DNA from: Porphyra umbilicalis
Lineage: Eukaryota > Rhodophyta > Bangiophyceae > Bangiales > Bangiaceae
DNA: 64,000 nucleotides
Direction of reading: 5' to 3'
NCBI GenBank assembly: GCA_002049455.2
Contig: KV919036.1
Span: 1-64,000, forward strand
Both the position numbers and the translations under genes were made by a program. This document shows positions 14,201 to 36,543 of this stretch, in pieces. Under the pieces are notes generated by a model. That model had not been told where the DNA came from, searched no databases, and worked only from the letters and a program-made list of their open reading frames with translations. Each line of letters begins with the position of its first letter. Positions within the stretch are counted from its first letter, which is position 1.

Positions 14201-16408
14201 ATGCCGCTGCGGACGCTGGACAAGGAACTCGCCAACGTGTGCGCGGTCACTAGTGTCGACGCTTTGGAAGACAAGACGGCCTCGTTGGTGTCCACGATGG
14301 GCGCGTCAGAGCCGGCGCCTGGCCGCAACGGACCCGACACATCTTACGAGATTCGGTATCGCCCCCCCCCTCTTGATTGTGGCTACGTGCCCGGGGTGGA
14401 AAATGCCGACCGCGCGGAGCACGCCATTGTCGCCGCGTTGCAGGCATCCCAAGCGGGGGTGCGCATGGCGCCACGGATTGGTGTCTGCGCGGTCGGCGGG
14501 AGCGGGAAGACTACCACGTGCGCAGGGGTGGCAGCATGTGAATGGGTGCGCACGCGCTTCAGCAAGGGCACCGTATGGGTGCAGTTAGACACCTCATCAA
14601 CGCTGCGAACCGTGGCGGAAGCCGCCGTGGCGCTTGTGTATCGCTTTTGTGGCTCCGACGCAGCCAAGCGATTGGCGACCTTGTCGGAGGACAAGGACTT
14701 CGTGGCGGTTGCGGCGGGCTATGTGCAATCCGTTCGGGTCGTGGACGCAGCCGAGTGGCTGGTGGTGATTGATGATGTCTTGCACAAGAAGCGGGAGCTG
14801 CTGCGACAGCTCCTTCGGCTGATCCCGCCGTCCACCCCTGTGCTGTTCTCGACCCGGTCTGAGGCGGTCGTTTCCGCGGTGCCTGGCGCGATACTGGTGT
14901 CCATCGACGCCCTGCCTATCGACGACGCGCTGCTGGTGCTGGCCGCGGCGACGGGCAAGGCGGCGGCAGCGGGGAAATCTCCGTTTTCAGCCGCAGAAGA
15001 AGTGGGTTGGGTCCGCCGAGTACTGATCAAGACAGAGTGCCATGCATTGTCGCTGGCCATTGTCGGCTCCATGATTGGCGCCCGCGGTGGCGCGTGGCAA
15101 GCGGTGGTGGAGGCGCTGGAGCGCCGGTGGATGGACCCGGATTTTCGGTGCTCGGACAGCGACTCGCCCCGGCCGTCTGTGCGTGCGACGTTGGACGTGA
15201 GCCTCGGGCTCCTGCCCGATGGTGTCTGCCGCGAAGCTTTTGCAGCGATGGGCGTTCTCCCTACTGACGTGCATCTGCCCGTACTGATGCGGCTGTGGCA
15301 GTCTTTGCTCGAAGCGGCGGCTGCAGTGGGCTGGCGATCAGCGGCGCAATCGAGCAGCCTGAGCAGTTCGGAAGTAGAGCACTTCGTCGACGCGCTCGTA
15401 CGGGCGGGGCTTCTTCGCAGGAATGTGAACAAGTCCAGCGGGAAGCTGGTTGGTGTCTTTATCCACCCAGTTGTTGGCCAGTACGCTCTGAGCTTGCTGG
15501 GCGATGCTGTCCGCGCTACGCACCAGCGAATAGTGGACAGCTACATGGGTGGGGTGGTCGTCGACCGCCTGGACATGCACGCGTGGCGGCAGCTCCCTTT
15601 GTGGGAAGTTGCTGATGATGGCTACTGGTACGACCATGCGGTCCGCCACCTTGCGGCGGCAGGGGACGTGTGCGGGCTGGTGTCAGCCATGGATCCGGCT
15701 TGGCGAGCCGCGCGTGTGCGGGTGAGCTCGCCGCTGGCCTTCCAGGCGGACGTGGAGGTTGTGCTATCCACATTGTCGGTGGTGGTGGGCGGCACCACCC
15801 CAGAGGCTGTCCGGTCACCTGTGCTACTCGGCCGCGTGCACGCGGCGCTGGCGTTGACCCATGCTGTGCGGATTACCGGGAGCCGGCGGACCAACATGGA
15901 GGCGGCCATTATGCACTGGGACAAGGCGCTGGAGCTTGTGACTAAAGTGGATGCGCCGGCACTTTGGGCAGATTTTCAAGCGGGCTGCGGCCGTGCTTAC
16001 CGTGTCCGTGTCGACGGCTCCCGGGCGGCCAACATTGAGGAGACGATTGCCTGCTACCACCGGGCGCTTGAGGTTCGCACGCGTGAGGCGGTGCCTTTCA
16101 AGTGGGCGGAGACGCAGAGCAACCTCGGCGCCGCGCACGTCGACCGGGTGGCTGGGGACAAGGCCACCAATGTGGAGGCGGCCATTGATTGCTACAAGGG
16201 TGCGCTCACTGTCCGCACGCGGGCGGCGGCGCCACTTGAGTGGGCGTCAACGCAAAACAGCCTCGGGGCGGCCTACAGCCGCCGCGTCGACGGAGACAAG
16301 GCATCTAATTTGGAGGCGGCGATCACCTGCTATCGTGAGAGCAAACCCTGCAACGTCGATCCCATCTTCCAATTGGGGAATCTAGAGGCGCAACGTGTGG
16401 CATGCTGA
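14201..16408 (+). CDS. NB-ARC/TPR STAND protein, 5' part, interrupted by a transposon
   Basis: A STAND-type signalling ATPase. The P-loop GGSGKTT is at residues 99-105, a Walker B/kinase-2 segment (WLVVIDDV) at about 186-193, an RNBS-B-like LFSTRS at about 215-220 and a GLPL-like CHALSLAIVG further on. A winged-helix/linker region follows. TPR-like repeats of about 49 residues start at about residue 546, with the signature (A/T)I.CY..AL.VRTR...P..WA.TQ.NLG.A....R..GDKA.N.E, as in NB-ARC/TPR and CHAT-associated proteins. Host coding sequence stops at 16338. The last 22 or so codons to the TGA at 16406 come from the left end of the inserted Harbinger element, so the present product would be a 735-residue truncated protein. 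Such proteins usually sense a ligand through the repeats and oligomerise through the ATPase; the ligand here is unknown. The start is the first ATG of the open frame; an upstream exon is possible. Confidence 0.88.
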   Translation: MPLRTLDKELANVCAVTSVDALEDKTASLVSTMGASEPAPGRNGPDTSYEIRYRPPPLDCGYVPGVENADRAEHAIVAALQASQAGVRMAPRIGVCAVGGSGKTTTCAGVAACEWVRTRFSKGTVWVQLDTSSTLRTVAEAAVALVYRFCGSDAAKRLATLSEDKDFVAVAAGYVQSVRVVDAAEWLVVIDDVLHKKRELLRQLLRLIPPSTPVLFSTRSEAVVSAVPGAILVSIDALPIDDALLVLAAATGKAAAAGKSPFSAAEEVGWVRRVLIKTECHALSLAIVGSMIGARGGAWQAVVEALERRWMDPDFRCSDSDSPRPSVRATLDVSLGLLPDGVCREAFAAMGVLPTDVHLPVLMRLWQSLLEAAAAVGWRSAAQSSSLSSSEVEHFVDALVRAGLLRRNVNKSSGKLVGVFIHPVVGQYALSLLGDAVRATHQRIVDSYMGGVVVDRLDMHAWRQLPLWEVADDGYWYDHAVRHLAAAGDVCGLVSAMDPAWRAARVRVSSPLAFQADVEVVLSTLSVVVGGTTPEAVRSPVLLGRVHAALALTHAVRITGSRRTNMEAAIMHWDKALELVTKVDAPALWADFQAGCGRAYRVRVDGSRAANIEETIACYHRALEVRTREAVPFKWAETQSNLGAAHVDRVAGDKATNVEAAIDCYKGALTVRTRAAAPLEWASTQNSLGAAYSRRVDGDKASNLEAAITCYRESKPCNVDPIFQLGNLEAQRVAC
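16336..16338. repeat. Target-site duplication TGA, left copy
   Basis: TGA precedes the left terminal inverted repeat and is repeated directly after the right one at 29879-29881. A 3-bp duplication of T-N-A form is the PIF/Harbinger hallmark. Removing one TGA and the element restores the codons of the NB-ARC/TPR gene. Confidence 0.9.
16339..16358 (+). repeat. Left terminal inverted repeat, Harbinger copy 1
   Basis: GAGCAAACCCTGCAACGTCG matches the reverse complement of the right end over all 20 bases. Similarity fades after this (ATCCCA against GCCCCA). It is the presumed cleavage and recognition end for the DDE nuclease. Confidence 0.93.
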
Positions 16409-16496
16409 ATGGAGAGCCCATTCTGGGGGCCCTGTTTGGGGCCAGACGCGATGTAGTTGGGCATCGAGCTGTCTGAAACGAGCCACGAGACGGTCT

Positions 16497-16540
16497 GAAT
16501 GGGGTCGTCATTGCTGGGTTATGTGTAGCCCCATTCTGGT
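16497..16540. promoter_or_regulatory. Left subterminal AATGGGG motif pair
   Basis: GAATGGGG and its inverted partner CCCCATTC flank about 28 bp. The same motif recurs many times at the right end of the element. Subterminal repeats of this kind often bind the transposase or its Myb-like partner; that role is inferred. Confidence 0.5.
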
Positions 16541-16599
16541 AGTCCAAATCCGAATGAAAGCGAAGGAGCGCTAAGGGATCTCGATCAGCGCTTAATGAA

Positions 16600-18130
16600 A
16601 CGAAACCACCGAAAAGTTGTCCGGAAAGTGTGCCCAACAGTCGCGGTGAGATTGCCACGTCCTCGTCAAGCGCCAGATATGCCGCTAATAATCGTCGAAA
16701 CCGATGACAACGTCGAAGAAAGAGGCATTCAAAGGGACGAACGGGCCGACACCTGGCACGGCCACGACATAAATCGGGCACCTCATTGGAACTAGGCCCC
16801 TGGGAAGAATCCGATCTCCTCGTGCGCAGTCCTGTCGATTGTAAACGGATTGGATCGGGCCACAGAAGAAGCGGTAAGCGGCTGGGCGGGGAAACTGGAG
16901 AGCGGGCGTCGCCACTGGCACGATCCGCATAGTGCGGAAGGCTCGTCGCGAGATATCAACAGGTCAGATGTCGTTGCCGTTGACACTCTCGGGAGCTGTT
17001 TTGAAACCGCCCAGTTTGGAGGGAAGTGCAGTCATTGGCTGATCCAGTGAATCGAACCAATCTGTCGTCCTGGATGGCATCACTTTTCTCAAAAGCTGCA
17101 CTTTCGGTGACTAGTCGACGCCACAAACTGTCGGTTTCGGTGCCACTTGCACAATGCTCGGTTGAAGCTGGGTCGCGTCATCGGATGAGATCGTGCGTGA
17201 GTGGGCCACTGGAGGGGTGCGAAGCGCTCTGCGCATTGGGTGGACACGGCGACGCCTCAGAACGGATGGCCAGCCGGTCACGTGACCAACTGGTCATCCT
17301 TTTGACGTTGGAACGGCCGCCGCGCCAACGCCCTCGCTGGCTCAGGAGGCGTGACGGCATTCAGCGCCGCGACTCGTCAGGGGCCGCCTCGCGGCCCCTC
17401 AGCCGTCCGACGTGTGCCGCGCCCGGCGTGTCAGTCTGACGCGTGCCGCTCGACCCCCCAGCCGTCCAACGTGTGTGGCGTAGGGGCGTATGATTCCCGC
17501 CTGTAAACGGGTCTGCGTTGTCAGGCTGCCGTGGCGGGTCTCTCCGGCTCGTCCCACCCGCTCGTTCATATTTTATCGGGCGGGCACGGCGCCTCTGTGG
17601 ACGGGCTGCACGTGGGACGACGAGACGCATGCGCGCTGGTCGGTTCTCAACCGTGACCAGTTTCTGGGAGCCAGGTGTCCTGCGGGGCGGGCCAGGCTGA
17701 CGCAGTCCCCCCACACTCGCTCACCCGCCGTCGGACGGCAGGTGGGATTGGGCGGGCGGCGGGGACGCGTCTCCTCTGTGTGCGCAATCGCGCCGGTGTG
17801 GTGGGACGTCTGTGCAGCGCGCGCGCTCCGGCTGCCATCCCGCCCACCCCTCCCCTCCACCCACCACGCCCACCCCTCCCCCCCTCTGTAACCGCGCTCA
17901 TGACGCGTGTGAAGGGCGCCAACGACACGCGACGACGCCGAGCGCAGCGGCAGCGCAACGGTCGCGCTGCCACCCCGCCCTCTCCGCCTTGCACCTGCGC
18001 GGGGCCGTGTGACCACGGCACCACGGACGCCCCCCCCCCCCCCCCCCCACCTGCTGAACGGTGCGCTGCACCCTGCCGCCCTTCCCGCCTCGGGTCAACG
18101 AGCTTCGCTGGTCCCAGGGAGGACGGCTCC
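16600..18130. other. Left flank of Harbinger genes, no supported gene
   Basis: Moderate-GC DNA up to about 17300, then GC-rich DNA with C-rich runs. A TATA-like CATATTTTATC near 17567 could serve the downstream SANT gene. Relative to copy 2 this copy carries 72 extra bases at about 16870-16945. Open frames here are uninterpretable. Confidence 0.4.
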
Positions 18131-19191
18131 ATGTACGCGCCTCCCCCCCCACCGCCCCGCGCTTTCGGGCCCTCCCCTCCCCGCAATCACTCCCGCCCCC
18201 CTCCTGCCGGCCGGGGTGTTGGCCGGCCGCTTAATCAAGGCGGCCGGCCTCCGGCACCACACCGGCTGCCCTGCCCTCCTCATCCCCGCCGCCTCGGACC
18301 TGACGCTGACCGCGCCGATCCTGACGACCGACGTGTTCGTCGACGCGTCGACGACGACGGGCGCTATCACCCTCAAGCCGGCGGCGACTATCCCCGTCGG
18401 TGGAGCCCGCCTCGTCGAGCAGCGGGCCCGCCCCGCGGGCCCCCTTGGCGCAGCCCCCCTCGACGCCCGGCGGGCCCCCCACAGGCCCCCCCCCCCCCCC
18501 TTGGTGGAGCCCGCAGCGAGGACCAACGGGCGCCCCACGGGGCCCTCGACGGTGCAGCCCTCCGCGACGACTGGCGGGTCCCGGACACGGATCCCCTCGC
18601 TGGAGCCCCCCGCGACGACCGGCGGGCCCGTTTGAGGACCCAAGGTGCTGGCCGCCGGAGCCACCGGTCGACGATCACCGGCGTTCGTACGGCGTTTGGC
18701 CGCCGCCGCCCCCGTCCTCGTCCACCCACGGGTACGCGAGCGCGGGCGAGCCGTGGCCAACCGGTGGGTACGACCCCACCGGTAGCTGGTCTTCCGCGTG
18801 GCGGCCACCGCCGTACCCGGTGTGCCACCGTCCGGCGCTCTGGAGCGGCGAGTCACCCGCCAAGCCACACGGCGGGCTCGCGTACCAGTGGGCGTTGACG
18901 ACGGGGCAGCCGCAGAGCACGCCTTTGCCGTTGATGTTGTTGCCCGCGCCGCCGCAGCCCTCGCTGCAGCCGACGCCGCAGGAGCCAGCGCGCCAACCTC
19001 TGTACGTGGTCGGGAGCCACCCAGCCCCGCAGCCGACGCCGCAGCCGACGCCGCAGGAGGCAGCTCGCCACCCTCTGTACGTGGTAGGCGGCCACCAAGC
19101 CCCGCCCCCCTCGACGTTTGTGCTGGTGCCTGCTCCCCCCCAGCCTCCCCAGCAGGCCCCTCTCTACCTGACGTCGCCGTTCCAGCAGTGA
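18131..19191 (+). CDS. Pro/Arg-rich reading frame upstream of the SANT gene, frame broken at poly-C
   Basis: From an ATG reading MYAPPPPPPRAFG the frame encodes a Pro/Arg-rich protein with RWSPPRR-type repeats. Protein-like sequence continues in another frame after the poly-C run at about 18485-18500 and ends with Tyr/Pro-rich PLYVVG repeats and a TGA 20 bases before the SANT ATG. It could be the disordered N-terminal part of the SANT protein, with poly-C errors or an intron breaking the frame, or a separate ORF. The two element copies differ in several C-run lengths here, so the frame is unreliable. Confidence 0.35.
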
Positions 19192-19211
19192 ACTACAACC
19201 TCCCCAAGTCC

Positions 19212-20444
19212 ATGGGCTCCAGCCTGGGATGGACGGACGAGGACCGCGTGCCGCTGTGTAGGGCCTACCTGGAGGTGAGCGAGGACCCTGTGAGCGCCAC
19301 TGGTCGCTCCAAGGACCAGCTGTGGGCGGCTGTGCACGAGAAGTGGACGGACCTGATGACCAAGAAGGGGCCCCTGCGCGTCAAGCGCAACGTCAGTGCG
19401 TTGGAGAAGCAGTTCAAGAAGATCCGGAAGGGGGTGAGCTCGTTTACTTCTTACTACCTGGCCGTCAAAAACATGCAAACTACCGGGAACCTGACGGAGG
19501 AGGACATTATCAGCGGTGCGGTCGCGCGGTACTGCTCGCTGGACATCTACGAGTCCATCCGCAGCGACCGGGAGAAGGACAAGCGCAAGGGCAAGACGGC
19601 CAAACGCAAAGCCAAACTGGCGCATTGCAAGTGGGTGGGGTGCTGGCGCGTTTTGCGCACATCTGACAAGTTCAGCGGCGCGGCCAACACGGCGGACGAC
19701 GCGAGTGTGGACGTGGGCGACTCTTCAGACGAGGACGGCGAGAGCGGGAGCACGAGCAGCCCGAACTCGCGCAACAAGGGGTATCAGAGCCGCCCGGGCG
19801 GCATCAAGGCCGCCAAGCTGATGCGGTCGGAGGACGCTGGAGTGGAGAAGCAGGTCAAGGCGAGCACGGCGGCGGTGGACAAGTTGACCGTTGCGCAGCA
19901 AGAGCGCACTGCGCTTTGCTTTTTTGACTCTCCCTCGATGCGTCACACGCCCGAGGCGGCACAGTACCGGCAGGCTGTTATGCTCAAGATGATGCAAGCT
20001 GCTGGCCTGGCGGCGCCCCCTGCACCGGCTCCCACGCCTGCGCCGCCGGCGCGCAGTGCTGCCAAGAAGATCCATGTTGTGGAAGTTGGCGACGGCGTGG
20101 CCGCCATGGAAGTCACCACTCTCGCGGCTGATGCATCGTCGTCGGCGCCGCCGGCGGCCGGCTCTGCCGCCGGAGCTAACGCGCCGCCGGGGGAGGACCC
20201 ACCGGCGGCGCGTGTGGCAGCAGATACTGCTGCTGCAACGGCTCTGGCGGCGGGGGCGAAGTCGCCGGCGGCGCCGCCGGCGCGCGGCAGCAGGGGGGGC
20301 GACAACCAGCGTGGCCGCAAGTCGCAAGCCGCGAAGCAGCGCGCCGCTTCTGCGGCTCTCAGCAAGCAGCTGGATACAACCCGCGGCCTTGACCAAAGTA
20401 GCGAGTCTGACACGACGACGACCACCACCACGGACACTGAGTAG
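19212..20444 (+). CDS. Harbinger SANT/Myb-like DNA-binding protein
   Basis: The 410-residue product begins just before a SANT/Myb-type trihelix domain (residues 1 to about 95: GWTDEDRVPLCRAYLEVSEDP, then LWAAVHEKW and SALEKQFKKIRKG). This is the form found in the second protein of PIF/Harbinger transposons, which binds the element ends and carries the nuclease into the nucleus. A basic cluster (KDKRKGKTAKRKAK) at about residues 120-135 is a likely nuclear localisation signal. The C-terminal half is Ala/Ser-rich, ending in an acidic Thr run. The start is the first ATG before the domain; a longer N-terminus in the same frame is possible. The copy 2 protein is the same length and almost identical. 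Confidence 0.85.
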   Translation: MGSSLGWTDEDRVPLCRAYLEVSEDPVSATGRSKDQLWAAVHEKWTDLMTKKGPLRVKRNVSALEKQFKKIRKGVSSFTSYYLAVKNMQTTGNLTEEDIISGAVARYCSLDIYESIRSDREKDKRKGKTAKRKAKLAHCKWVGCWRVLRTSDKFSGAANTADDASVDVGDSSDEDGESGSTSSPNSRNKGYQSRPGGIKAAKLMRSEDAGVEKQVKASTAAVDKLTVAQQERTALCFFDSPSMRHTPEAAQYRQAVMLKMMQAAGLAAPPAPAPTPAPPARSAAKKIHVVEVGDGVAAMEVTTLAADASSSAPPAAGSAAGANAPPGEDPPAARVAADTAAATALAAGAKSPAAPPARGSRGGDNQRGRKSQAAKQRAASAALSKQLDTTRGLDQSSESDTTTTTTTDTE

Positions 20445-20503
20445 CGTAGCGACTGTGTATTGCTTTGTGCTTAGTGACATGTAGCAGCAGCTCGGTGACA
20501 ACG

Positions 20504-20549
20504 AAAGGTTTTTTTTTTATCCCTCTTCGGGGGTTTTTTTTTCCTACAC
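20504..20549 (+). terminator. T-run / GC hairpin / T-run module after the SANT gene
   Basis: AAAGG, ten T, AT, a CCC-loop-GGGGG hairpin, nine T and CCTACAC. The same architecture, with the same AAAGG and CCTACAC edges, lies in sense orientation just after the DDE nuclease gene. It starts about 60 bases after the SANT stop and ends 2 bases before the next ATG. It may be an RNA 3' end signal or a polypyrimidine-rich leader for the next frame; the function is inferred. Confidence 0.45.
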
Positions 20550-20551
20550 TT

Positions 20552-21484
20552 ATGTCTTTCTCGGTGCACACAGACGACCTTGCGGCCCAACCGCGGGCAG
20601 CAACAGCCGCGGGCGAGGGGACCTCGGCGCCAGCGCCGGGGCGACGGCACGCGGCGACAGCCGCGAGCGAGCAAACGCCAGCGCAAGCGCGGGGGCAACC
20701 GCGGGCACGAAAAGCCGCGGGCGAGGGGACCGCGGCGCCAGCGCAGTGGAAACCGCGGGCAGCAACAGCCGCGGGCGAGGGGACCGCGGCGCCAGCGCCG
20801 GGGCGACGGCACGCGGCGACAGCCGCGAGCGCGCAGACGGCGGCGCAAGCGCGGGGGCAACCGCGGGCACCAACAGCCGCGGGCGAGGGGACCGCGGCGC
20901 CAGCGCCGGGGCGACGGCACACGGCGACAGCCGCGAGCGAGCAAACGCCAGCGCAAACGCGGGGGCAACCGCGGGCACGAAACGCCGCGGGCGAGGGGAC
21001 CGCGGCGCCATCTCAGAGGCAACCGCGGGCAGCAACAGCCGCGGGCGAGGGGACCGCGGCGCCAGCGCCCGGGCGACGGCACGCGGCGACAGCCGCGAGC
21101 GCGCAGACGGCGGCGCAAGCGCGGGGGCAACCGCGGGCACCAACAGCCGCGGGCGAGGGGACGGCGGCGCCAGCGCCGGGGCGACGGCACACGGCGACAG
21201 CCGCGAGCGAGCAAACGCCAGCGCAAACGCGGGGGCAACCGCGGGCACGAAAAGCCGCGGGCGAGGGGACCGCGGCGCCAGCGCAGAGGCAACCGCGGGC
21301 AGCAACAGCCGCGGGCGAGGGGACCGCGGCGCCAGCGCCGGGGCGACGGCACGCGGCGACAGCCGCGAGCGCGCAGACGGCGGCGCAAGCGCGGGGGCAA
21401 CCGCGGGCACCAACAGCCGCGGGCGAGGGGACCGCGGCGCTAGCCCGCGGGCGACGGCGGGGGGCAACAGGCGGGCAGCGGTAG
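20552..21484 (+). CDS. Possible 18-residue tandem-repeat protein
   Basis: From MSFSVHTDDLAAQPR the frame runs 310 codons through repeats of 18 residues, for example AAGEGTAAPAPGRRHAAT and AASAQTAAQARGQPRAPT. The DNA period is 54 bp, so unit gains and losses preserve frame. Copy 2 has exactly 36 residues more (two units) and stays open. An AATAAA signal lies about 145 bp downstream. No known domain is seen, and other frames across the array are also open, so coding is only plausible. The product would be basic and disordered. Confidence 0.35.
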   Translation: MSFSVHTDDLAAQPRAATAAGEGTSAPAPGRRHAATAASEQTPAQARGQPRARKAAGEGTAAPAQWKPRAATAAGEGTAAPAPGRRHAATAASAQTAAQARGQPRAPTAAGEGTAAPAPGRRHTATAASEQTPAQTRGQPRARNAAGEGTAAPSQRQPRAATAAGEGTAAPAPGRRHAATAASAQTAAQARGQPRAPTAAGEGTAAPAPGRRHTATAASEQTPAQTRGQPRARKAAGEGTAAPAQRQPRAATAAGEGTAAPAPGRRHAATAASAQTAAQARGQPRAPTAAGEGTAALARGRRRGATGGQR

Positions 21485-21500
21485 ACGCGGGCGAGCGATG
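20580..21500 (+). repeat. 54-bp minisatellite with 270-bp higher-order repeat
   Basis: The landmark GCGACGGCAC occurs at 20641, 20803, 20911, 21073, 21181 and 21343. The spacings of 162 and 108 bp alternate, i.e. three and two 54-bp units, giving a 270-bp higher-order unit. Units contain CCGCGGGC and CGAGGGGACCGCGGCGCCAGCG motifs. Copy 2 has two more 54-bp units. Confidence 0.85.
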
Positions 21501-21628
21501 CTGCCCGGTGTGGGCCGCCCGTTCGCACGTCGCCGCAGGCCCGAGTTCGGAGCCGCAAGCGAACGCGGGCGAGCGGTGAGCGCCGAGTACATTTCTTCGA
21601 ATGTTCTCGGCCAGCATGACAGTGGGAC

Positions 21629-21639
21629 AATAAAATAAA
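21629..21639 (+). promoter_or_regulatory. Overlapping poly(A) signals
   Basis: Two overlapping AATAAA hexamers are followed by a GT-rich stretch (GTGTTGTTTTTGGAGTATGTGGG), the usual arrangement of a polyadenylation site. It probably ends the plus-strand transcript covering the SANT gene and the 18-residue repeat frame. It is conserved in copy 2 at 39069-39079. Confidence 0.6.
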
Positions 21640-22199
21640 AACAGTTCTGCCGAAATCGGTGTTGTTTTTGGAGTATGTGGGCATGTTCAAATTATAGGTC
21701 GCGTGACTGACTGTACAGCCCCCGTAAGACCCCGTCTCGCGTTCTCAACTTTTGTGGCGCAAATACATGCACATGTCTTGCTGTCCGTGCTTCGTATCTC
21801 AACGCCACCGCTCAAATGGAACGAGAGGGCGCGGGGGATGTTCGCTTTCCCGCATGGGGATCAGCCCCGCGCGAAGGCCGCCCCTCCCACAACGATCTGC
21901 CGCACCGCCAGCGGCGGGGGTCGTGGGCCGGCACTGGCGGCGCGGCGCGTTCGCTGCGCCGACCGCTGCCGGGCGGCCAGTGCGGCGCGAGCGCGGCGCA
22001 GCAGAGCTTTCTACCCTCGCCGCCGCTGCTGCGGCCGCGGCGCGGCGTTAACGCGCCCGGTGACGCAACGGCCACGCTGGCGGCGGCGACACGGGCAGCG
22101 CGCCGCCGACGCTGTTGGCGGCGAAGCGCGGCGGGGACGACGGCGGCGGGCGGTCGGTGCCGTGTGCGGCCGACGGCGACGGGAAGGGCCGCGGGCTGA

Positions 22200-22990
22200 T
22201 TGGGGGGGGAAGGGTGGCGGGGAACGGGGGGGGGGGGTCTCTGCCACCGCCGCTGCCGCACCGTGGCGCAGCGCGCGCCCCTGCGCGTCGGCACTGCCGG
22301 CCGCGGCGGCACGGCGGGGGGGTTGGCGGGGGGGGGGGGGGGGGGGTCTGTGCCACCGCCGCTGCCGCATCGTGGCGCGGCGCCCGCCCCTGCGCGTCGG
22401 CAATGGCGGCCGCGGCGGCACGGCGGGGGGGTTGGCGGAGGGGGGGGGGGGGGGGTCTTTGCCACCGCCGCTGCCGCATCGTGGCGCGGCGCCCGCGCGC
22501 TGGCAATGGCGGCCGCGGCGGCGCGGCGGGGGGGTTGGCGGGGGGGGGGGGCGGGGGGGTCTTTGCCACCGCCGCTGCCGCATCGTGGCGCGGCGCCCGC
22601 GCGCTGGCAATTGCGGCCGCGGCGGCACGGCGGGGGGGTTGGCGGGGGGGGGTGGGGGGGGGGTCTCTGCCACCGCCGCTGCCGCACCGTGGCGCAGCGC
22701 GCGCCCCTGCGCGTCGGCACTGGCGGCCGCGGCGGCACGGCGGGGGGGTTGGCGGGGGGGGGGGGGGGGGGGTCTCTGCCACCGCCGCTGCCGCATCGTG
22801 GCGCGGCGCCCGCCCCTGCGCGTCGGCAATGGCGGCCGCGGCGGCGCGGCGGGGGGGTTGGCGGGGGGGGGGGGCGGGGGGGTCTTTGCCACCGCCGCTG
22901 CCGCATCGTGGCGCGGCGCCCGCCCCTGCGCGTCGGCAATGGCGGCAGCGGCGGCACGGGCGGCGCGTCGCCAACGCTTTTGGCGGGGGG
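22200..22990 (+). repeat. G-run minisatellite of about 108 bp, seven units
   Basis: Seven units of 103-110 bp start GCCACCGCCGCTGCCGCA at about 22243, 22352, 22461, 22564, 22669, 22778 and 22888. Each contains a run of 10-20 G after GGGGGGGTTGGC. Indels in the G runs destroy any common reading frame. The G-runs could form G-quadruplexes on the plus strand. Copy 2 has eleven units. Confidence 0.9.
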
Positions 22991-23425
22991 GCGCGGCGGC
23001 CGCAAGAGCGGCGGGTCCCTGCGGCCATACTGCCGTTGGCGGCGGTGGCGTGGGCGGCGGCGGCGGCGGCGAAAGCGGCGGTGGCGTGCCCGTGGCCACT
23101 CCACGGCGTTTCGTGCCGCAGTCCCCGCACCCCACACGGCCGCCGCCCGTCGGCCGCCGCCGCCACTGCCGCCGCCGCGGGGCTGCACGCGCTGGTGGCT
23201 GCCGCCGATGGCGCCGACGGCACGACGCGCCGGCGGTGGTTCTCCCTTTGCCTCCCGTGGGTGGCGACGCGGGTGCGAGGGCCGCGGCTTCTCCGGATGT
23301 TTCTTTTTTTTTTGCACCTACGTCCCACGTCTTACTTGGACTCCATCCCACTCGCGCACCACGTCTCCCAAAGAAGTAAATGAATGTAGTAAACTCAATG
23401 CAAACATGTTCCCACAACGCAAAAG

Positions 23426-23839
23426 CTACGCCCGCTCGCCATGGATGCGGCGGGCAAGCTGAATGTCCTTGGTCATGACAGTCACACGCTTTCCGTGGAT
23501 GGCGCACAGTTGAGCGTCCTGGAAGAGGCCCACCAGGTAGGCCTCGGACGCCTCCTGAAGCGCCAGTACAGCTGACGCCGAAAAGCGAGGAGAGTTGGTG
23601 TACTCCTGCGCAATCTCGCGCACCAGCCGCTGGAAGGGGAGCTTGCTGATAAGCAGCTCCCCCGACCGCTGGAATTTGCGGATGTCCCGCAGGGCGACCG
23701 TCCCAGGCCGGTAACGGCGCTTGACTGCGGCCTTGCCACCGGCCTTGGACTTGGTCGCCCGCCTGGCGGCGGCCCTGGCCAGAGAAGCCGGGGCCTTGCC
23801 GCCAGTGGACCGCCGCGCCGTCTGCTTCGTCCGCGCCAT
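23426..23839 (-). CDS. Histone H3 variant carried by the transposon
   Basis: Encodes 137 residues including Met, one more than canonical H3. The ATG gives [11 protein letters not shown], an excellent H3 N-terminus, and the frame ends ...GERA then TAG, the exact H3 C-terminus. The histone fold is intact ([64 protein letters not shown]), with C110 and H113 conserved. Compared with canonical H3, K9, K27 and K56 are arginine and K79 is replaced; K18 and K23 also appear lost, and the tail around 28-40 is rearranged with one extra residue. K4, S10, K14, K64, K115 and K122 remain. R131 is His in this copy. No metazoan-type histone stem-loop follows the stop. A TATA and CCAAT boxes lie upstream on the same strand. 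It lies wholly inside the Harbinger element and is present in both copies. Confidence 0.95.
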
Positions 23840-24178
23840 GGCTGGCGGGGCGCAGGTGTGGTAGCCGCCACGGGTGGGGGAGGAGCGGGGGGGCAGGAGG
23901 AGGGGAGTTGAGGCGGGGTGAGGGGGGGGCAGGTCCACGCCAGACAACAGTCAGCGCGGCCGGGCCAGGTCCCACCAACGGTAGAGGCTGGGGGCGCGGG
24001 GGGGGGGAAGGGGGGCAGGGTGCCAGGGGGGACAGGTCAACCCCAGAACACAGCCGGCGAGGCGGGGACAGGCCGCACCGCCAGTGGAGGTTGGCGGGGC
24101 GGGGATGGGGAAGGGGATGGGCAGAAGGGACGATGCTGCCGGATGACGCCGAGAGGAGATGGCTGGGATGGGCTCCTC

Positions 24179-24184
24179 TATATA
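24179..24184 (-). promoter_or_regulatory. TATA box of the transposon H3 gene
   Basis: TATATA in the context GGTATATAGAGG on the minus strand, about 340 bp before the H3 ATG. The long gap implies a long 5' untranslated region or a 5' intron ending near CGCCAG just before the ATG. Identical in copy 2. Confidence 0.55.
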
Positions 24185-24659
24185 CCTGGAGTGGGTCTGC
24201 CTGGGGTGCCGTGGGTGACGGTCGCGGCCACTGCCCGGCAGAGACCACCTGGGCAGCACCAGAAAGCCCTCCGCGACTCAGGTTGGATGCATCAGTGGGG
24301 ACATTCCATCGCCTTTGTATTGGGCTCGCAGAGTCACCCGAATCCGCCGTCTCTATGACTGGTTTCAAGCGTGGACATGTACACTTCTTCTCATCTTCGT
24401 GAGTTCGTGTTCAATAAAGTGCGGAATGTATTGCAAGAGAAAGGAATGCTTGTCCGAAGAACCGCGCCACCCGTACGCTGACGCCCTACGCAATGCGGGA
24501 TCGTTCACCACAGATCGCCCCATCTGATCGCCCCCCCAGGGAGCGATCTTCGGATGACAAACCGCCTCCCCCCCGCTCTGTGAGGGTCCCGCTGTCGCCG
24601 CCGTAGATCTCATTCGCAGCCATCCACTCGACGGCGTCATACAAACTGCGCGACAGCAA

Positions 24660-25154
24660 CCAATGGGGTGTGCAGATATGCTGTTAAACAACCACACGGT
24701 TCAGAGCTGTGCAGTGTCAGATGTATGCACGTGTTCTTGTTGGTTCTTCATAAGTGTACGTCGGGGACCGCGTGATTTTCTGTCGTTCGCCCTCTGTGGG
24801 CATTGAAACAGCGCCGCGACAACCAATGGAACGGCTTAGACATGTTCATTGAAATTGACGGGGGGCCAAGTCTTGCTATGTATGGTACATACCAGTGGTG
24901 TGGTTGGTTCTTGAACTTGTGTAAGTAGTCACATGAGCTGCTGGCGACCGTCAACTGTCGGACAAGAACTTTCGAGAGCCACGATAACCAATGGGGTTAC
25001 TGACAGTTGTTATTCATCAAACATGTGGTTGGAAGCCTTGCATCGATAATAGATACAGGTGTTTTGATTGGTCGTTGTCGTCATGTGAGGGATCGCATGA
25101 CCATCCACACGTTCGTGACTGGCGTATCTTCTTTGAGTGACGCCATGTCATTGG
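24660..25154 (-). promoter_or_regulatory. CCAAT-box array upstream of H3
   Basis: CCAAT occurs at 24660, 24823 and 24988 (163 and 165 bp apart) with inverted ATTGG at 25067 and 25150. The surrounding sequence is a degenerate repeat of about 164 bp, each with TTGGTTCTT and AACCAATGG elements. CCAAT boxes are common in histone promoters, where NF-Y-type factors bind. The spacing is conserved in copy 2 (42533, 42696, 42861). Confidence 0.5.
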
Positions 25155-25235
25155 ACTGTGTCATCGTCAGCACCTTATGTGGCAATGAATTGTTTGTGCG
25201 GGATTTTTGTGACGAGCGATAACGGCAGAAGCAAG

Positions 25236-25241
25236 TTTATT
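25236..25241 (-). promoter_or_regulatory. Minus-strand AATAAA signal
   Basis: TTTATT on the plus strand reads AATAAA on the minus strand, just beyond the end of the GGC-rich block. It could end a minus-strand transcript from that block. Confidence 0.3.
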
Positions 25242-25599
25242 AATGCGGTCCATGGGCAGCGTGTCGAGCCACAAGATCTTGCGAAGCTCGCACGCGCAAT
25301 CATCTGGCGGCTCTTCGCACGAAAGCCTCCCCACCGCAGGCCGCCCTGCCCACGCTGCTGCTACCCGCAATCCTGCCCCGCCCGCGCTCCCGAGCCGCCA
25401 CCGCCAGCAATCTCTGAAGCCTGGTCGCCTGGAGCCGCTCCGCCGCCGCGGCGCGGGCGCTGCGTACCCTCGCGCCGCCGCACGTGCGCTCGCCGCCAGC
25501 TGGACTCCGCAAGCGCAGTGGGCGGCGTCGCTGGCGGCCAAGTGCGCCATGTGCGGCGAAGGCGACGGCAGCAGCTGCGGCTACGGCTGTGACGGCGGC

Positions 25600-25647
25600 A
25601 GCAGCGACGGCGGCAAAGGCGGCGGCGGCGGCGGCCGCGGCGGCGGG

Positions 25648-25690
<43 letters not shown>

Positions 25691-25861
25691 TCAGCGGTGG
25701 CGGGGGCGGCGGCGGTGGCGTCGGCGGTGGCGGGGGCGGCGGCGGCGGCGGCGGCGGCGTCAGCGGTGGCGGGGGCGGCGGCGGCGGCGTCGGCGGTGGC
25801 GGGGGCGGCGGCGGCGGTGGCGGCGGCCATGGCAGTGGTGGCGGCGGTGGCGGCGGGGGCA

Positions 25862-25892
<31 letters not shown>

Positions 25893-26014
25893 CGGGGGCA
25901 GCGGCGGCGGCGGCGGTGGCGGCAGGGGCGGCGTTGGCCGTGGCGGTGGTGGCAGCGGTGGCGGCGGGGGCAGCGGCGGGGGCAGCGGCGGCGGCGGCGG
26001 CGGCGGCGGGGGCA

Positions 26015-26045
<31 letters not shown>

Positions 26046-26107
26046 CGGGGGCGGCGTTGGCCGTGGCGGTGGTGGCAGCGGTGGCGGCGGGGGCAGCGGC
26101 GGAGGCA

Positions 26108-26138
<31 letters not shown>

Positions 26139-26689
26139 CAGGGGCGGCGTTGGCCGTGGCGGTGGTGGCAGCGGTGGCGGCGGGGGCAGCGGCGGGGGCA
26201 GCGGCGGCGGCGGCGGCGGCGGCGGTGACGGCAGGGGCGGCGTTGGCCGTGGCGGTGGTGGCAGCGGTGGCGGCGGGGGCAGCGGCGGGGGCAGCGGCGG
26301 CGGCGGCGGCGGCGGTGGCGGCGGGGGCAGCGGCGGCGGCGGCGGCGGCGGCGACGACAGCGGCGGCCCGCTGCCGCTGCGTGCCACCTCCGTGCCGACC
26401 CCCTCGGTGGCTGCCGCTGTGCAGCCGTCGCCTGGCCTCCCGCCGCCGCACCTGCACTCGCCGACAGCCTCGACGCCGCCCAAGCGCAGTGGGCGGCGTC
26501 GGTGGCGGTCAACGGCGGCGGAGGAAGCAGCTGTGGTGGCGGCTGCACCGGCGGCTGCGAAGGCGGCAGCGGCGACGGCGGCGGGGGCGGCGGTGGCGGT
26601 GCGGGCGGCGGCGGGGGCGGCGGCGATGGGGGCGGCGGCGAAGGTGGGGCGGCGGCGGGGGCGGCGGCGGGGACGGGGGCGGCGGCGGG

Positions 26690-26726
<37 letters not shown>

Positions 26727-26820
26727 TTGGCGGTGGCGGCGGTGGCGGCGGCGGCGGCGGCGACCCGCCGTCGGGCGCTGCGCGGCCACCGGCGCGGGAG
26801 CCGCGAGCGCCAGCATGACC
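25600..26820. repeat. (GGC)n-rich array with open frames on both strands
   Basis: Almost uninterrupted GGC/GGT/GGG/GTC triplets that would encode poly-Gly or poly-Ala on the plus strand and poly-Pro or poly-Ala on the minus strand. Longer units are recognisable, for example GGCGGCGTTGGCCGTGGCGG repeats and a non-repetitive island GTGCCACCTCCGTGCCGACC at about 26382. All frames are open by composition, so coding strand and product cannot be decided. The minus-strand frame, ending upstream of an AATAAA, would give a proline-rich extensin-like protein. Copy 2 has an extra 536-bp duplication. Confidence 0.8.
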
Positions 26821-26989
26821 ACGGGTTGCCACCGTGTGGAGGCCGCGGCAGGCCGGCGCGGGCGGCCCTCACGACGGCGACGACCGCGGCCGAGGCAGCC
26901 CGGGGGATCCCCCGCCGGACCCGTCGGCTAGTCACTCCGGGTTAGCGGCGCTGGGGGCCTCCCGCCATTCGAACGATCGTAGCAAAGGT

Positions 26990-27032
26990 GTGTAGGAAAA
27001 AAAACCCTGCCCAGCGGGAAAAAAAAACCTTT
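26990..27032 (-). terminator. T-run / GC hairpin / T-run module after the DDE gene
   Basis: In sense orientation: AAAGG, nine T, CCCGCTGGGCAGGG, eight T, CCTACAC. It begins about 30 bases after the nuclease stop codon. The edges and layout match the module after the SANT gene, although the hairpin sequence differs, which suggests a shared 3' signal. Confidence 0.45.
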
Positions 27033-27061
27033 GTGTCTACTCTACTACGCCCTACATCGCG

Positions 27062-28648
27062 TCACCCAATGTACGGGGCAAGCAGTTCGCCTCGGTCGCG
27101 ATAAATGTCCGCGGTCAGGTCAGCTCGCAGGCGCTCGTTCTCCTGCACATTCTGCGTCTCAGCCCAAGCATCAAAAATGGCAGCCATGCCAGCGGCAGGC
27201 GGGTGGGCGACGGGATTAAGAGCAGGGGGCGCGTTGCCGACGGCGTCAATGTTATCCATTGCCGCAGCGACGCCGCTGACGCCACCGCCAGGTGCTGGAG
27301 CCCCGGCGGCAGCAATAACACCGCCGACGCCACCGGGACTGCCGCCGCCAGGTGCACCTTCCCCGGCGGCAGCAATGCCGCCAGCTGGTGTCCCACCGCT
27401 CTGTCCTTCCCCCCCATCTGACCCGCCGCCAGCATCGCCACCTACGCCACAGTTAGTCCCACCATCACCCCCCACCGCACGTCGACGGCGACTCAAAAAG
27501 TTGCTACGTCGACTCTCCACACACATGTTATGCAGAATGCAAATGGCCTTGTAGGTCGTCACTAGCTGCGACACAGAGCGGTAGCGCCCAGGGTGGAGCG
27601 CAACGTGAAAGCGCTTCATCAATACGCCAAACAGCCGCTCCACGTCCTTTCGGATGGCCTCTTGGAGGCGGTTGAACGTCGTCTGCTCCTCGGTGGACGG
27701 CTTGGGGTGTGGCGACATCAGAAAAGCGTAGCGCGGGTAAATCCCGTCGACAAGGTAGTAGGGTAGCGTGCGGGTGCGGCCATTGATAGTAAAGGGCGTG
27801 CCGCGAGGCGGCCACCTGCCGCCAGTGACGTCCAGGTACAGCGGCGACTGCTGCATGACGTTGATGTCGTTCAGACTGCCGGGGGCCCCAACAAACAGGT
27901 GCCACACCCACAGGTCCTCGTCACACACAGCTTCTACGACGATGCCCCGCTTGCCCTTGCGACTCTGGTACGCCCCCGCCATCCCCGTCGGGCACTGGTG
28001 CCACTCCCAGTGGCAACAGTCGAGGGAGCCCATGCACCCCGGCATCCCGCGTTCCTTGTTGCGCTCCATAATGGTGTTGAGCTCGTCTTGGTTCGGTCGT
28101 CGCAGGTAGGTAGGTCCCCATCGCTTGACAATAAACTCCATCAGCAACTTGGTCGACTCGGCGATCACCGTCCGGGACAGGCGCACGTACTCGTCCGCTC
28201 GGTCGGCCGCCTCGCCGTAGGCGATCACTCGAAAGGCAGCCACTACCTTCTGCAGAGGATGCGCTTGCAGCTTGCCCGTCGCATTAATGCGTTGTTGGAA
28301 GAAAGGCTCGTCCTTAACAGCCAAATAGATACGCCGAAAAACGGCGCGGGGGACACGGAACCGCGTCTCAAAGTCCCGGTCATCGTAGATAGGGAGCACA
28401 CCGCCAACACCGAAGTAGTCTCGCAAAATGGCGTGCACACCGGCCGCAAAGTCGCGGCGCTTGTTGCCACGGCGCCCCGCGGTGGAGCCACGATAAAGCC
28501 ACCGTCGCGCGATGCGCTTGGCGCGCGCGCGTCGGCGCACCGCCATGAGCACATTGACGTGCGCCTGCACCACAGCAGCAACGTCCGCGCCGTCGTCCTC
28601 GGCCAGCAGGGCGGCGGTGGCCGAGACCTCCTCCTCCTGGACGTCCAT
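27062..28648 (-). CDS. PIF/Harbinger DDE nuclease (transposase)
   Basis: A 528-residue protein of the DDE_Tnp_4 / plant transposon superfamily, which cuts and joins the element ends. Candidate catalytic residues are D210 in GSLDCCHWEW, D301 in YYLVDGIYPRY and E337 in DVERLFGVL, with the conserved GSLNDINVM (D261) between. A helical N-terminus (residues 70-190, with YDDRDFETRFRVPRAVFRRI) precedes the core; CILHNMCVE marks its end. A Gly/Ala-rich tail (about 390-490) leads to a short helical C-terminus. The ATG giving MDVQEEE was chosen because upstream sequence is low complexity, though the frame stays open for 159 more codons. It is the same length in copy 2 with a few substitutions. Confidence 0.95.
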   Translation of the reverse strand: MDVQEEEVSATAALLAEDDGADVAAVVQAHVNVLMAVRRRARAKRIARRWLYRGSTAGRRGNKRRDFAAGVHAILRDYFGVGGVLPIYDDRDFETRFRVPRAVFRRIYLAVKDEPFFQQRINATGKLQAHPLQKVVAAFRVIAYGEAADRADEYVRLSRTVIAESTKLLMEFIVKRWGPTYLRRPNQDELNTIMERNKERGMPGCMGSLDCCHWEWHQCPTGMAGAYQSRKGKRGIVVEAVCDEDLWVWHLFVGAPGSLNDINVMQQSPLYLDVTGGRWPPRGTPFTINGRTRTLPYYLVDGIYPRYAFLMSPHPKPSTEEQTTFNRLQEAIRKDVERLFGVLMKRFHVALHPGRYRSVSQLVTTYKAICILHNMCVESRRSNFLSRRRRAVGGDGGTNCGVGGDAGGGSDGGEGQSGGTPAGGIAAAGEGAPGGGSPGGVGGVIAAAGAPAPGGGVSGVAAAMDNIDAVGNAPPALNPVAHPPAAGMAAIFDAWAETQNVQENERLRADLTADIYRDRGELLAPYIG

Positions 28649-29627
28649 ACGGAAAGCAGGGACGCACACCACCGGACCCCGTGGGGGGCGGGGTGGGAAT
28701 GGGGAAGAACAGCAGGGGCGCCTGGTGCGACGTGGAAATGGAGGAGGGGGGGAGGAGGGGGGACGAGCGGTGCGAGCAGCGCGCGTGCCCAGCGAGATCG
28801 AGGAGGGGGGGGGAGTGGGATGGAGCCCAGCCGTGAGAGCAGAGCGCGTGGCCGGCGCGATGGGGGAGGGGCCGCGTCGGCCGTGCTCACGAGTGTGGTG
28901 GGTGGACGAAAATCGGCGGCGGCGGGATGGGGGTGACGACGACGGTGGCAAGCAGCGGGCGGCCCGTGCCGTCCTCTGAATGGCGTGCCCGGCCGACCAC
29001 TGCGGACAGCCACCCCAGCCCATCCCCCCACTGCAGATGCACGCCGAGATGCCCCGCCACCACCCCCCCAGGCAGCGCTCGTGCGGGCGCCCCCGGCCAC
29101 TGATGCACGGTGGCTGGGCGGCCACCCCCCTTCAAACGGTGCCGATCGCGGCCCCCGCCATCCAGGCGCGACCGTTCAGGCTGCAGGACCCCCTCAGGCT
29201 CCTGTCAGGGCGCCCCAATAGCTGTAGCATAGCGACCGGCCCAATCTCGCCCCTCCACGCGGCGCTGTCGACGGCCCGCGCCGCCCTCGTGAAACGACCA
29301 CCCTCCACGAGGGCTCCCAGAGAGGCCCTCCGCAGGCGCAGCTCACCTGGGTTGACAGCCCCTCCCCTCTCAGATTGCTCTGTGAGCGATGCGTGGGAGC
29401 CACGCAGGCGCAAAAAGATCCAACGCGCTTCCCTCTGTGCATGCCGTGACAAAATATCTGGCGAGAGCCGTGAACCCGCTTTCGAGAGGAGTGGTCCAGA
29501 TCGACAATTTCTAGTTTCTGAATGACTGTGAAAAACCGGGGCTGATCGTGGACCCACACGTTGCTCGCTTAAGCGTGCTATCTTCTATACTATTTCGAAT
29601 CGTTCGACCAATGAGAGAGCATAGAAG
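28649..29627. other. Region between the nuclease gene and the right subterminal repeats
   Basis: Probably the promoter and 5' leader of the minus-strand nuclease gene, GC-rich near the ATG and moderate further right. No separate gene or clear TATA is seen. Confidence 0.4.
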
Positions 29628-29800
29628 AATGGGGTCGGCTTCGGTCCGACCCCATTTCCGGTCGGGAATGGGGTCGGTCCGGCACGGGCCCCATTTCTGA
29701 AAGCAACATATGCGTTGTACTTACGTCATTTGCTTTGGGCGAAATGATGCCTAAATGGGGTCGGAGACGTTGATGCGGGAGCGTTCCGGCCCCATTTCCT
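29628..29800. promoter_or_regulatory. Right subterminal AATGGGG(TCGG) repeat cluster
   Basis: The motif AATGGGG or its complement CCCCATT occurs about six times in 170 bp. It includes an inverted pair GAATGGGGTCGG...CCGACCCCATT at 29628-29656 and further copies near 29668, 29690, 29752 and 29790. The left end of the element has the same motif pair. Binding sites for the SANT protein or nuclease are the likely role (inference). Confidence 0.55.
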
Positions 29801-29858
29801 TAATAATGAGACACGTTTGCGCCACGTTGCGCCACGTTTCGCAAATATGACTTGGGGC

Positions 29859-29878
29859 CGACGTTGCAGGGTTTGCTC
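29859..29878 (-). repeat. Right terminal inverted repeat, Harbinger copy 1
   Basis: Reverse complement of the left 20-bp repeat, perfect match, followed directly by the TGA duplication. Confidence 0.93.
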
Positions 29879-29881
29879 TGA
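29879..29881. repeat. Target-site duplication TGA, right copy
   Basis: Matches the TGA before the left end. The next base continues the TPR codons of the interrupted gene. Confidence 0.9.
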
Positions 29882-30515
29882 GGCGCTCACGGTGTACACG
29901 CGGTCGGCGGCGCCGCTGTGGTGGGCCAGGACCCGGTACAACCTTGGGATAGCCTACTACGACCGGCTTGTGGGCGACAAAGCAGCCACCATCGAGGCGG
30001 CCATTGCCTGCTACGACGATGCGCTCACCGTGCGTACGCGGGAGGCGGCACCGCTTCAGTGGGCGGCCACTCAGCACCACCTCGGCAAGGCGCACCGCGA
30101 TCGTATGTTTGGGGACCGGGCGTCTAACGTTGCGGCGGCGGTCGCCTGCTTTGACCGTGCCCTCACCGTGCGCACCCGGGCGGCGGTGCCGCTCAACTGG
30201 GCTGAGACGCAGTACCAAATTGGTGTGATGCACCACGGCCGCTACGAGGGGAGCGCCACGGCTGCGGTCGACTTGGACGCGGCGGTCGCCTGCTACCGGT
30301 TGGCGCTGGAGGTGCGCACGTCCGATGCGGCGCCGCAGGACTGGGCGCTCACGAGTTTCTTCTTGCTGATGGCGTTTGTCGACGGGGAGCGCTGGTCGGC
30401 AGCGGCAGAGTGCGGGCTGGCATTGGAGCGGTTCGGGCCGCGCTGGACGGCGTGGCCCGCACAGCATGCGGCTGTGGCGAGCGCCGTTGCAGAGGCCCGG
30501 CGCGTGCTTGCGTAG
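29882..30515 (+). pseudogene. NB-ARC/TPR gene, 3' part separated by the transposon
   Basis: Continues the interrupted TPR array: about four more repeats with the same AI.CY..ALTVRTR...PL.WA.TQ signature, then a C-terminal helical segment and TAG. Joined to the 5' part at the TGA duplication it is in frame, giving 923 residues in total. No decay is visible in this half, so the insertion is young. Alone it lacks a start and the ATPase domain. Confidence 0.88.
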
Positions 30516-36503: not shown

Positions 36504-36543
36504 CGTCGCCGTTCCAGCAGTGAAATACAACCTCCCCAAGTCC

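What the first reader, a model, noticed from the sequence alone, without database searches (positions are those of the whole stretch)
16339..29878. A PIF/Harbinger DNA transposon that carries a complete histone H3 gene
Seen: a 20-bp TIR and TGA-flanked element holds DDE nuclease, SANT/Myb protein and an intact H3 with its own TATA and CCAAT boxes. Known: PIF/Harbinger elements normally carry only the nuclease and Myb-like genes in a few kb. I know of no Harbinger with a core histone as standard cargo. The same cargo in both copies shows it is part of the mobile unit, not a host gene caught between elements.
Basis: partly seen in the sequence, partly recalled or inferred. Interest (0 to 1): 0.93.

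Follow-up and report, generated by a model that had tools for sequence, protein, structure and literature searches.

The report
Jumping gene carrying its own histone
In a red seaweed (Porphyra umbilicalis) a family of "cut-and-paste" jumping genes carries, besides its two usual genes, a third one for a histone H3 that lacks the two classic silencing sites (lysines 9 and 27) and has been preserved about as strictly as the transposase, which suggests that it helps the element escape being switched off.

Summary
Confirmed to the base: a 13,540-bp PIF/Harbinger-type element (16339-29878) with perfect 20-bp TIRs and TGA duplications interrupts an NB-ARC/TPR gene; the joined flanks give a 923-aa frame. 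It holds a second-protein ORF, an intact histone H3 and a DDE nuclease. Host: Porphyra umbilicalis (inferred). H3 is a lineage rule: 23 of 27 TIR pairs contain it; 20 of 21 checked pairs have identical TNA duplications; it lies beside 31 of 39 transposases at >=82% identity and 0 of the other 65 scored. H3 diverged in step with the transposase (dS 0.65 and 0.66) under comparable constraint (dN/dS 0.12 and 0.09). K9R is in 43 of 43 full-length copies; K27R in 42; K4 and K14 are kept in 42 each. Best reading: a third core gene, a histone that cannot take K9/K27 silencing methylation and keeps the element expressible. Anatomy, cargo and selection are shown; deposition and anti-silencing are inferred. 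H3 in DNA transposons is known from fungal hAT elements (PMC3538342, PMC6710886); new are the Harbinger host, the fixed silencing-site changes and the lasting selection.

The parts
16336..16338 (.). left target site duplication TGA
16339..16358 (+). left 20-bp terminal inverted repeat
18798..20444 (+). second-protein ORF, SANT/NAM-associated type (548 aa as listed; conserved core from about 19176)
   Evidence: dN/dS 0.18 against the C82 copy
20534..21589 (.). 54-bp tandem repeats
22110..22990 (.). G-rich repeats of about 109 bp
23426..23839 (-). histone H3 gene, 137 aa, one open frame, with K9R, K27R, K56R, K36A, K79T and no K18
   Evidence: dN/dS 0.05 and 0.12 against C28 and C82
24179..24184 (-). 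TATATA word 345 bp upstream of the H3 ATG (possible promoter, not tested)
24319..24323 (-). CCAAT word 484 bp upstream of the H3 ATG (possible promoter, not tested)
25439..26800 (.). GGC-rich repeat tract (ends approximate)
27062..28648 (-). DDE nuclease of PIF/Harbinger type (528 aa; D210, D301, E337 present)
29859..29878 (-). right 20-bp terminal inverted repeat
29879..29881 (.). right target site duplication TGA
14201..16338 (+). 5' part of the interrupted host NB-ARC/TPR gene
   Evidence: NB-ARC over its cut-off, TPR below it
29882..30515 (+). 3' part of the same host gene; joined to the 5' part it gives a 923-aa open frame
   Evidence: TPR below its cut-off
33759..48115 (.). second copy in the window; left TIR lost at an N (33758), right TIR 48096-48115; second protein 36508-37428 +, H3 41304-41714 -, DDE core 45685-46884 -

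Best explanation
This is a lineage of PIF/Harbinger DNA transposons in Porphyra umbilicalis that gained a histone H3 gene, most simply once, and has kept it as a third core gene. Shown: the H3 lies inside TIR/TSD-bounded units, is the rule in one transposase clade and was not found beside transposases outside it, has diverged in step with the transposase and second protein, and is under comparable purifying selection. Shown: all 43 full-length copies have arginine instead of lysine at position 9 and 42 of 43 at position 27, so the protein cannot be lysine-methylated at the two classic silencing sites, while K4, K14 and most recalled DNA- and histone-contact residues remain. Inferred: the protein is made, pairs with host H4 and is built into nucleosomes on or near element copies (or genome-wide in small amounts), diluting H3 that can carry K9/K27 methylation and so keeping the transposase genes expressible. 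It would work as a transposon-coded anti-silencing factor made of chromatin itself. My estimate: about 0.95 for the third-core-gene part, about 0.45-0.5 for the anti-silencing step; the number below is for the whole.
For: Exact ends, TSD and restored host frame. 20 of 21 H3-bearing pairs with identical TNA duplications. 23 of 27 TIR pairs hold H3. DDE at >=82% identity: 31 of 39 have H3 within 12 kb on the same strand; the other 65 of the 104 scored: 0 (one search scored 104 of 852 candidates; the 82% line was drawn after seeing the data); H3 and DDE identities correlate, rho 0.95, n=31. Window copy against C82: H3 dS 0.646, dN/dS 0.12; DDE dS 0.664, 0.09; second protein dS 0.729, 0.18. Other H3 pairs between lineages: L010-L036 0.07, L010-L083 0.13, L036-L083 0.19, L010-L017 0.03, window-C28 0.05. 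Copies with a stop in the nuclease, C9 and C79, give H3 0.46 and 1.13 on few changes, as expected if selection acts on the propagating lineage. 39 of 43 copies stop-free; R9 43/43, R27 42/43, K4 42/43, K14 42/43; residues 1-16 (commonest letters) differ from host only at K9. Of 50 related proteins picked by hand from the 120 listed, nine of them P. umbilicalis: R9 46, R27 46, K4 44, K14 46. In the red alga Cyanidioschyzon merolae H3K27me3 covers 50% of repetitive elements and goes with low expression (PMC5405695, passages). Transposon-coded anti-silencing exists: VANC in Arabidopsis (PMC5735166, abstract in listing).
Against: No expression, protein or chromatin data. K18, K23, K36, K37 and K79, not tied to silencing alone, are lost as well, so the change is broader than an edit of silencing sites; R63 is S in 42 of 43. 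The alignment of residues 17-38 has gaps, so the K18, K36 and K37 columns are less certain than K9 and K27. dN/dS does not fall evenly with divergence: pN/pS is 0.85, 0.25, 0.48 and 0.61 in the dS bins 0-0.4 and about 0.2 from 0.5 on; decayed old copies give 0.52 (L010-L095) and 1.63 (L036-L090). No H3K9 methyltransferase could be named: Pre-SET gave no match, but the control genomes were silent too, and the 85 SET matches could not be read. K9R should not block methylation of other H3 molecules as K9M does (K9M: PMC5030085, abstract in listing; the contrast is recalled), so much of the local H3 would have to be replaced. Four of 27 TIR pairs lack an H3 match; whether they move on transposase from other copies is unknown.
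Confidence: 0.5

Rival explanations
1. The H3 is a selected core gene, but its job is in transposition rather than anti-silencing: a special nucleosome on the element or on donor/target DNA helps excision, repair or target choice, and the lysine losses are side effects.
For: Selection on H3 is close to that on the nuclease; fold and most recalled DNA contacts are kept; losses include K18, K23, K36, K79, not only silencing sites.
Against: Residues 1-16 are held as in host H3 except K9, odd for a tail under relaxed constraint; related Harbinger lineages in which no H3 was found also multiplied (0 of 65).
Confidence: 0.25
2. Dosage effect: dozens of extra H3 genes disturb the H3:H4 balance or crowd out host H3 and loosen chromatin in general, whatever the tail says.
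For: 43 full-length copies, 39 stop-free.
Against: A mere dosage effect does not require the uniform R9/R27 tail (43/43 and 42/43) nor a protein distinct from host H3.
Confidence: 0.12
3. Passenger: a host H3 trapped and copied along without function, as in Pseudocercospora hAT elements.
For: Such transduplication of H3 is documented in fungi, with copies inactivated by RIP (PMC6710886, abstract and passages); the closest pairs of copies here drift almost freely (pN/pS 0.85 at dS under 0.1).
Against: dN/dS 0.03-0.19 in the pairs between lineages that I named, dS up to 0.69, and 39 of 43 copies stop-free.
Confidence: 0.03
4. The H3 variant now serves the host (for example as a gamete or replication variant) and the transposon only multiplies it.
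For: Many intact copies.
Against: Selection is seen between transposon lineages while single insertions decay (C9, C79), which fits selection through transposition; intact canonical host H3 genes exist (L091-L093; L094 is frameshifted in the assembly).
Confidence: 0.05
5. Assembly artefact or a host H3 between two unrelated elements.
For: The second window copy does begin at an N.
Against: 20 of 21 pairs with matching TNA duplications (C94 and C480 share a right flank but not a left one) and a restored host frame.
Confidence: 0.01

Closest known systems
PIF/Harbinger DNA transposons
   Same: DDE_Tnp_4/Plant_tran nuclease plus a second protein gene in tail-to-tail orientation, short TIRs, 3-bp TNA duplications (two tail-to-tail genes and TNA as the classic Harbinger pattern: PMC12477816 on Ectocarpus, passages)
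   Different: a third conserved gene, histone H3; 20 of the 23 H3-bearing pairs are 11.2-14.6 kb, against a few kb usual in the family (recalled)
H3L in a hAT transposon of Pyrenophora tritici-repentis (PMC3538342, passages)
   Same: an H3-like gene inside a TIR-bounded, likely autonomous DNA transposon, 26 near-identical copies, ESTs seen
   Different: hAT superfamily; H3L has tail insertions and the authors suggest drift; the passages I saw report no selection test against the transposase and no silencing-site pattern
H3 transduplication by hAT elements in Mycosphaerellaceae (PMC6710886, abstract and passages)
   Same: H3 captured and amplified by a DNA transposon
   Different: in P. fijiensis 90% of copies are truncated, and the copies are inactivated by RIP
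VANC anti-silencing proteins of VANDAL elements (PMC5735166, PMC10398659; abstracts in listing)
   Same: proposed role: transposon-coded protein that counters silencing
   Different: VANC is a sequence-specific factor, not a histone
Viral single histones, e.g. bracovirus H4 (PMC9145170, passages)
   Same: a parasitic genome codes one host-like histone that enters host nucleosomes
   Different: virus-derived, H4, extended tail; here a DNA transposon and an H3

Membership tests
PIF/Harbinger | DDE nuclease of the DDE_Tnp_4/Plant_tran type with D, D, E residues | tested here: met
   PF04827 2e-60, PF13359 7e-16; D210, D301, E337 in 10 of 12 element copies; C82 has E and A at two of them, C48 lacks the part with D2 and E
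PIF/Harbinger | second SANT/Myb-like protein, tail-to-tail | tested here: met
   ORF 18798-20444 +, opposite to the nuclease; PF14303 2e-6; 129 genomic matches listed. That it is SANT/Myb-like rests on sight: no such Pfam model reached 1e-3
PIF/Harbinger | terminal inverted repeats | tested here: met
   perfect 20-bp TIR, 433 genomic matches at up to 3 mismatches against 11 for the control
PIF/Harbinger | 3-bp TNA target site duplication | tested here: met
   20 of 21 pairs: TGA 9, TCA 7, TTA 3, TAA 1; miss C32
PIF/Harbinger | mobility of the enzyme | not testable with these tools
   only footprints of past insertion
Histone H3 | core histone domain and H3 sequence over full length | tested here: met
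   PF00125 1e-38; full-length sequence match to solved H3, 5e-54
Histone H3 | canonical tail and core lysines | tested here: not met
   K9, K18, K23, K27, K36, K37, K56, K79 replaced or absent in 42-43 of 43; hence a variant, not canonical H3
Passenger transduplication (fungal hAT type) | cargo free of selection, decaying | tested here: not met
   dN/dS 0.03-0.19 in the named pairs between lineages; single old copies do decay (L090, L095)
Transposon anti-silencing factor (VANC-like role) | removes or prevents silencing of the element | not testable with these tools
   only the K9R/K27R pattern and selection point to it

The most novel reading that the evidence does not exclude
A transposon lineage that writes its own chromatin: it codes a silencing-proof H3 (arginine at 9 and 27) as an essential gene, so that its copies are wrapped in nucleosomes that cannot receive K9/K27 methylation.
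Probability: 0.42. Interest if true: 0.93.

Novelty: new variant of a known kind. Interest (0 to 1): 0.83.

Why it matters
How transposons fight silencing is known in few cases. A histone kept as a core transposon gene, with the two classic silencing lysines replaced, would be an anti-silencing device made of chromatin itself. It offers a natural K9R/K27R histone held by selection over a synonymous divergence of about 0.65, in a red seaweed, and a prediction that chromatin profiling can test directly.

Tried and rejected
Passenger, assembly and host-gene-between-elements readings: rejected. A second Harbinger family with H3: the divergent H3 at C61 lies near another DDE gene, but by eye none of that gene's other places has an H3 place within 12 kb, so it is taken as chance. 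Histone 3' stem-loop or any other Rfam RNA at 22900-24700: none at E<=1. Viral relatives of the H3: none confirmed. Silencing writers in the host: Pre-SET no match, with equally silent controls; 85 SET matches, sequences not obtainable. Shared promoter: L011 and L036 match at 63.6% over the gene and its flanks; constraint upstream was not tested. Ten paper searches: nothing in the listings shown (5 to 20 titles each where any, of up to 16,006 papers) reports a Harbinger with H3 or a transposon H3 in red algae; one search found no paper at all. The Porphyra genome paper was not seen. Rows dropped: of 79 H3 matches, 43 full-length transposon-type copies were analysed; 5 rows of host H3 genes and 31 fragments or divergent H3s were not. 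Of 433 TIR matches only the 100 listed were paired. Of the 23 H3-bearing pairs, C29 and C33 were not checked for duplications. The H3-less pairs (C6, C16, C76, C173) could not be read. One search scored 104 of 852 candidates, 128 of 545, 7992 candidates with 120 listed. In one search the numbering after residue 30 is off by one (short host reference); one search repeats it with L091. The Fisher p rests on rounded site counts.
Full report
OBSERVATION. The window holds a unit bounded by perfect 20-bp inverted repeats (16339-16358 and 29859-29878) and a TGA duplication. It contains a second-protein ORF (+), a histone H3 (-) and a DDE nuclease (-), with long GC-rich repeats between them. The left flank ends and the right flank resumes inside one repeat unit of an NB-ARC/TPR gene; with one copy of TGA kept, the joined flanks read as a single frame of 923 aa from the start at 14201. 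So this is an insertion, not a set of neighbouring genes. NB-ARC passes its Pfam cut-off; the TPR matches are below theirs.

HOST. The genome is an 83.8-Mb assembly in 665 contigs. Nine of the 120 listed H3 relatives are named Porphyra umbilicalis, and eight of the nine come from contigs of exactly the lengths of C33, C174, C42, C9, C73, C29, C3 and C32; P0016 has no match among the lengths I saw. I infer that the window is from P. umbilicalis.

THE CARGO IS A RULE. One search counts 433 TIR matches at up to 3 mismatches against 11 for the reversed pattern. The 100 listed form 27 adjacent pairs under 36 kb; 23 contain an H3 match and C6, C16, C76 and C173 do not. I examined the ends of 21 H3-bearing pairs: 20 have identical 3-bp duplications, all of TNA form (TGA 9, TCA 7, TTA 3, TAA 1); C32 does not match. 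C94 and C480 share the right flank sequence but not the left. Among 104 scored matches to the nuclease (of 852 candidates), 39 share at least 82% identity; 31 of these have an H3 within 12 kb downstream on the same strand, and C29 is a further case, its unit being 35 kb long. Of the other 65, none has. The 82% line was drawn after seeing the data. H3 and nuclease identities to the window copy run in parallel (rho 0.95, n=31). The simplest reading is that H3 was gained once in this clade and inherited with the transposase.

SELECTION. Window copy against C82, a member of an older lineage: H3 dS 0.646, dN/dS 0.12; nuclease dS 0.664, 0.09; second protein dS 0.729, 0.18. The three genes have diverged for about the same time under comparable constraint. 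Against C28: H3 0.05, nuclease 0.07, second protein 0.18. Other H3 pairs: L010-L036 0.07 (14 non-synonymous, 50 synonymous; Fisher p about 1e-20 on rounded sites), L010-L083 0.13, L036-L083 0.19, L010-L017 0.03. Within lineages: L010-L031 0.58, L036-L037 0.47, and decayed copies L010-L095 0.52 and L036-L090 1.63. C9 and C79, with a stop in the nuclease, give 0.46 and 1.13 on few changes. By dS bin over all transposon pairs, pN/pS is 0.85 (0-0.1), 0.25, 0.48, 0.61, 0.29 (one pair), then 0.22, 0.20, 0.23, 0.19 from 0.5 on: not an even fall, because old decayed copies sit in the middle bins, as I read it. Low values across the deep splits and drift at the tips are what a gene needed for propagation should show. 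These are pairwise counts; copies are not independent.

THE HISTONE. The 43 full-length transposon H3s separate from two host H3s (100/100); the bootstrap had not settled, two host rows are the only outgroup, and the source of the gene is not resolved. Numbered by host L091: K4 42/43 and K14 42/43 kept; K9 is R in 43/43; K27 is R in 42/43; K56 R, K36 A, K79 T and K23 A in 42/43 each; K18 is a gap in 43/43; K64 42/43, K115 43/43, K122 42/43 kept. The alignment has gaps between residues 17 and 38, so K18, K36 and K37 are less certain than K9 and K27. By commonest letters residues 1-16 match host H3 except at K9. Most DNA-contact and four-helix residues, listed from memory, are unchanged; R63S, Q85S, S86A, C107A, N108Q, A114G and others differ. 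Among 50 related proteins picked by hand from the 120 listed (nine from P. umbilicalis, the others without a name in the listing), R9 is in 46, R27 in 46, K4 in 44 and K14 in 46; one has K at 9. 39 of 43 genomic copies are free of stops.

MECHANISM. H3K9 and H3K27 methylation are tied to transposon silencing in plants, animals and some ciliates (PMC12477816, passages), and in the red alga Cyanidioschyzon merolae H3K27me3 covers 50% of the repetitive elements and goes with low expression (PMC5405695, passages). An H3 that keeps the fold, K4 and K14 but has arginine at 9 and 27 would form nucleosomes that cannot carry these marks. I infer that it is deposited on or near element copies and keeps them expressible. 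Against this: other lysines are lost as well, K9R should not poison the writer enzyme as K9M does (recalled), no K9/K27 writer was identified here, and nothing shows expression. The main rival is a role in transposition itself.

KNOWN RELATIVES. By nuclease, second protein, TIRs and TNA duplication it is a PIF/Harbinger element. H3 capture by DNA transposons is known from hAT elements of fungi: H3L in Pyrenophora (PMC3538342, passages) and RIP-inactivated copies in Mycosphaerellaceae (PMC6710886, abstract and passages). The passages I saw report no selected H3 without silencing sites in a transposon. VANC proteins (PMC5735166, abstract in listing) are a functional precedent for anti-silencing, and bracovirus H4 (PMC9145170, passages) for a parasite's histone in host nucleosomes. 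The only named species among the 120 listed nuclease relatives is Pyropia yezoensis, at 57%; no Pyropia H3 is among the 120 H3 matches listed (a capped list).

VERDICT. New variant of a known kind, with a strong and testable hypothesis.

Noticed in passing
whole genome G000: 85 SET-domain matches, several in open frames of equal length (1225 aa three times, 1247 and 1251 aa twice each), which suggests that SET genes too are amplified, perhaps by mobile elements.
   Followed up: partly
G000: C83, C121, C1, C390, C150, C2, C12, C39, C358, C17:290760: A further set of divergent H3-like genes (53-63% identical), two of them (C83, C121) with equal scores on different contigs; possible centromeric or other variants.
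   Followed up: partly
window 3129-4277 +: Fragment of an LTR-type retrotransposon polyprotein: RVT_1, integrase zinc-binding and integrase core domains.
   Followed up: no
window 33758: Single N followed directly by element sequence: a likely assembly seam that cuts off the left end of the second copy.
   Followed up: yes
window 14201-16338 and 29882-30515: NB-ARC/TPR gene with a 138-bp (46-residue) repeat, disrupted by the element.
   Followed up: yes
G000 C94 and C480: Two H3-bearing copies have the same right flank sequence but different left flanks; they may sit in copies of another repeat.
   Followed up: no
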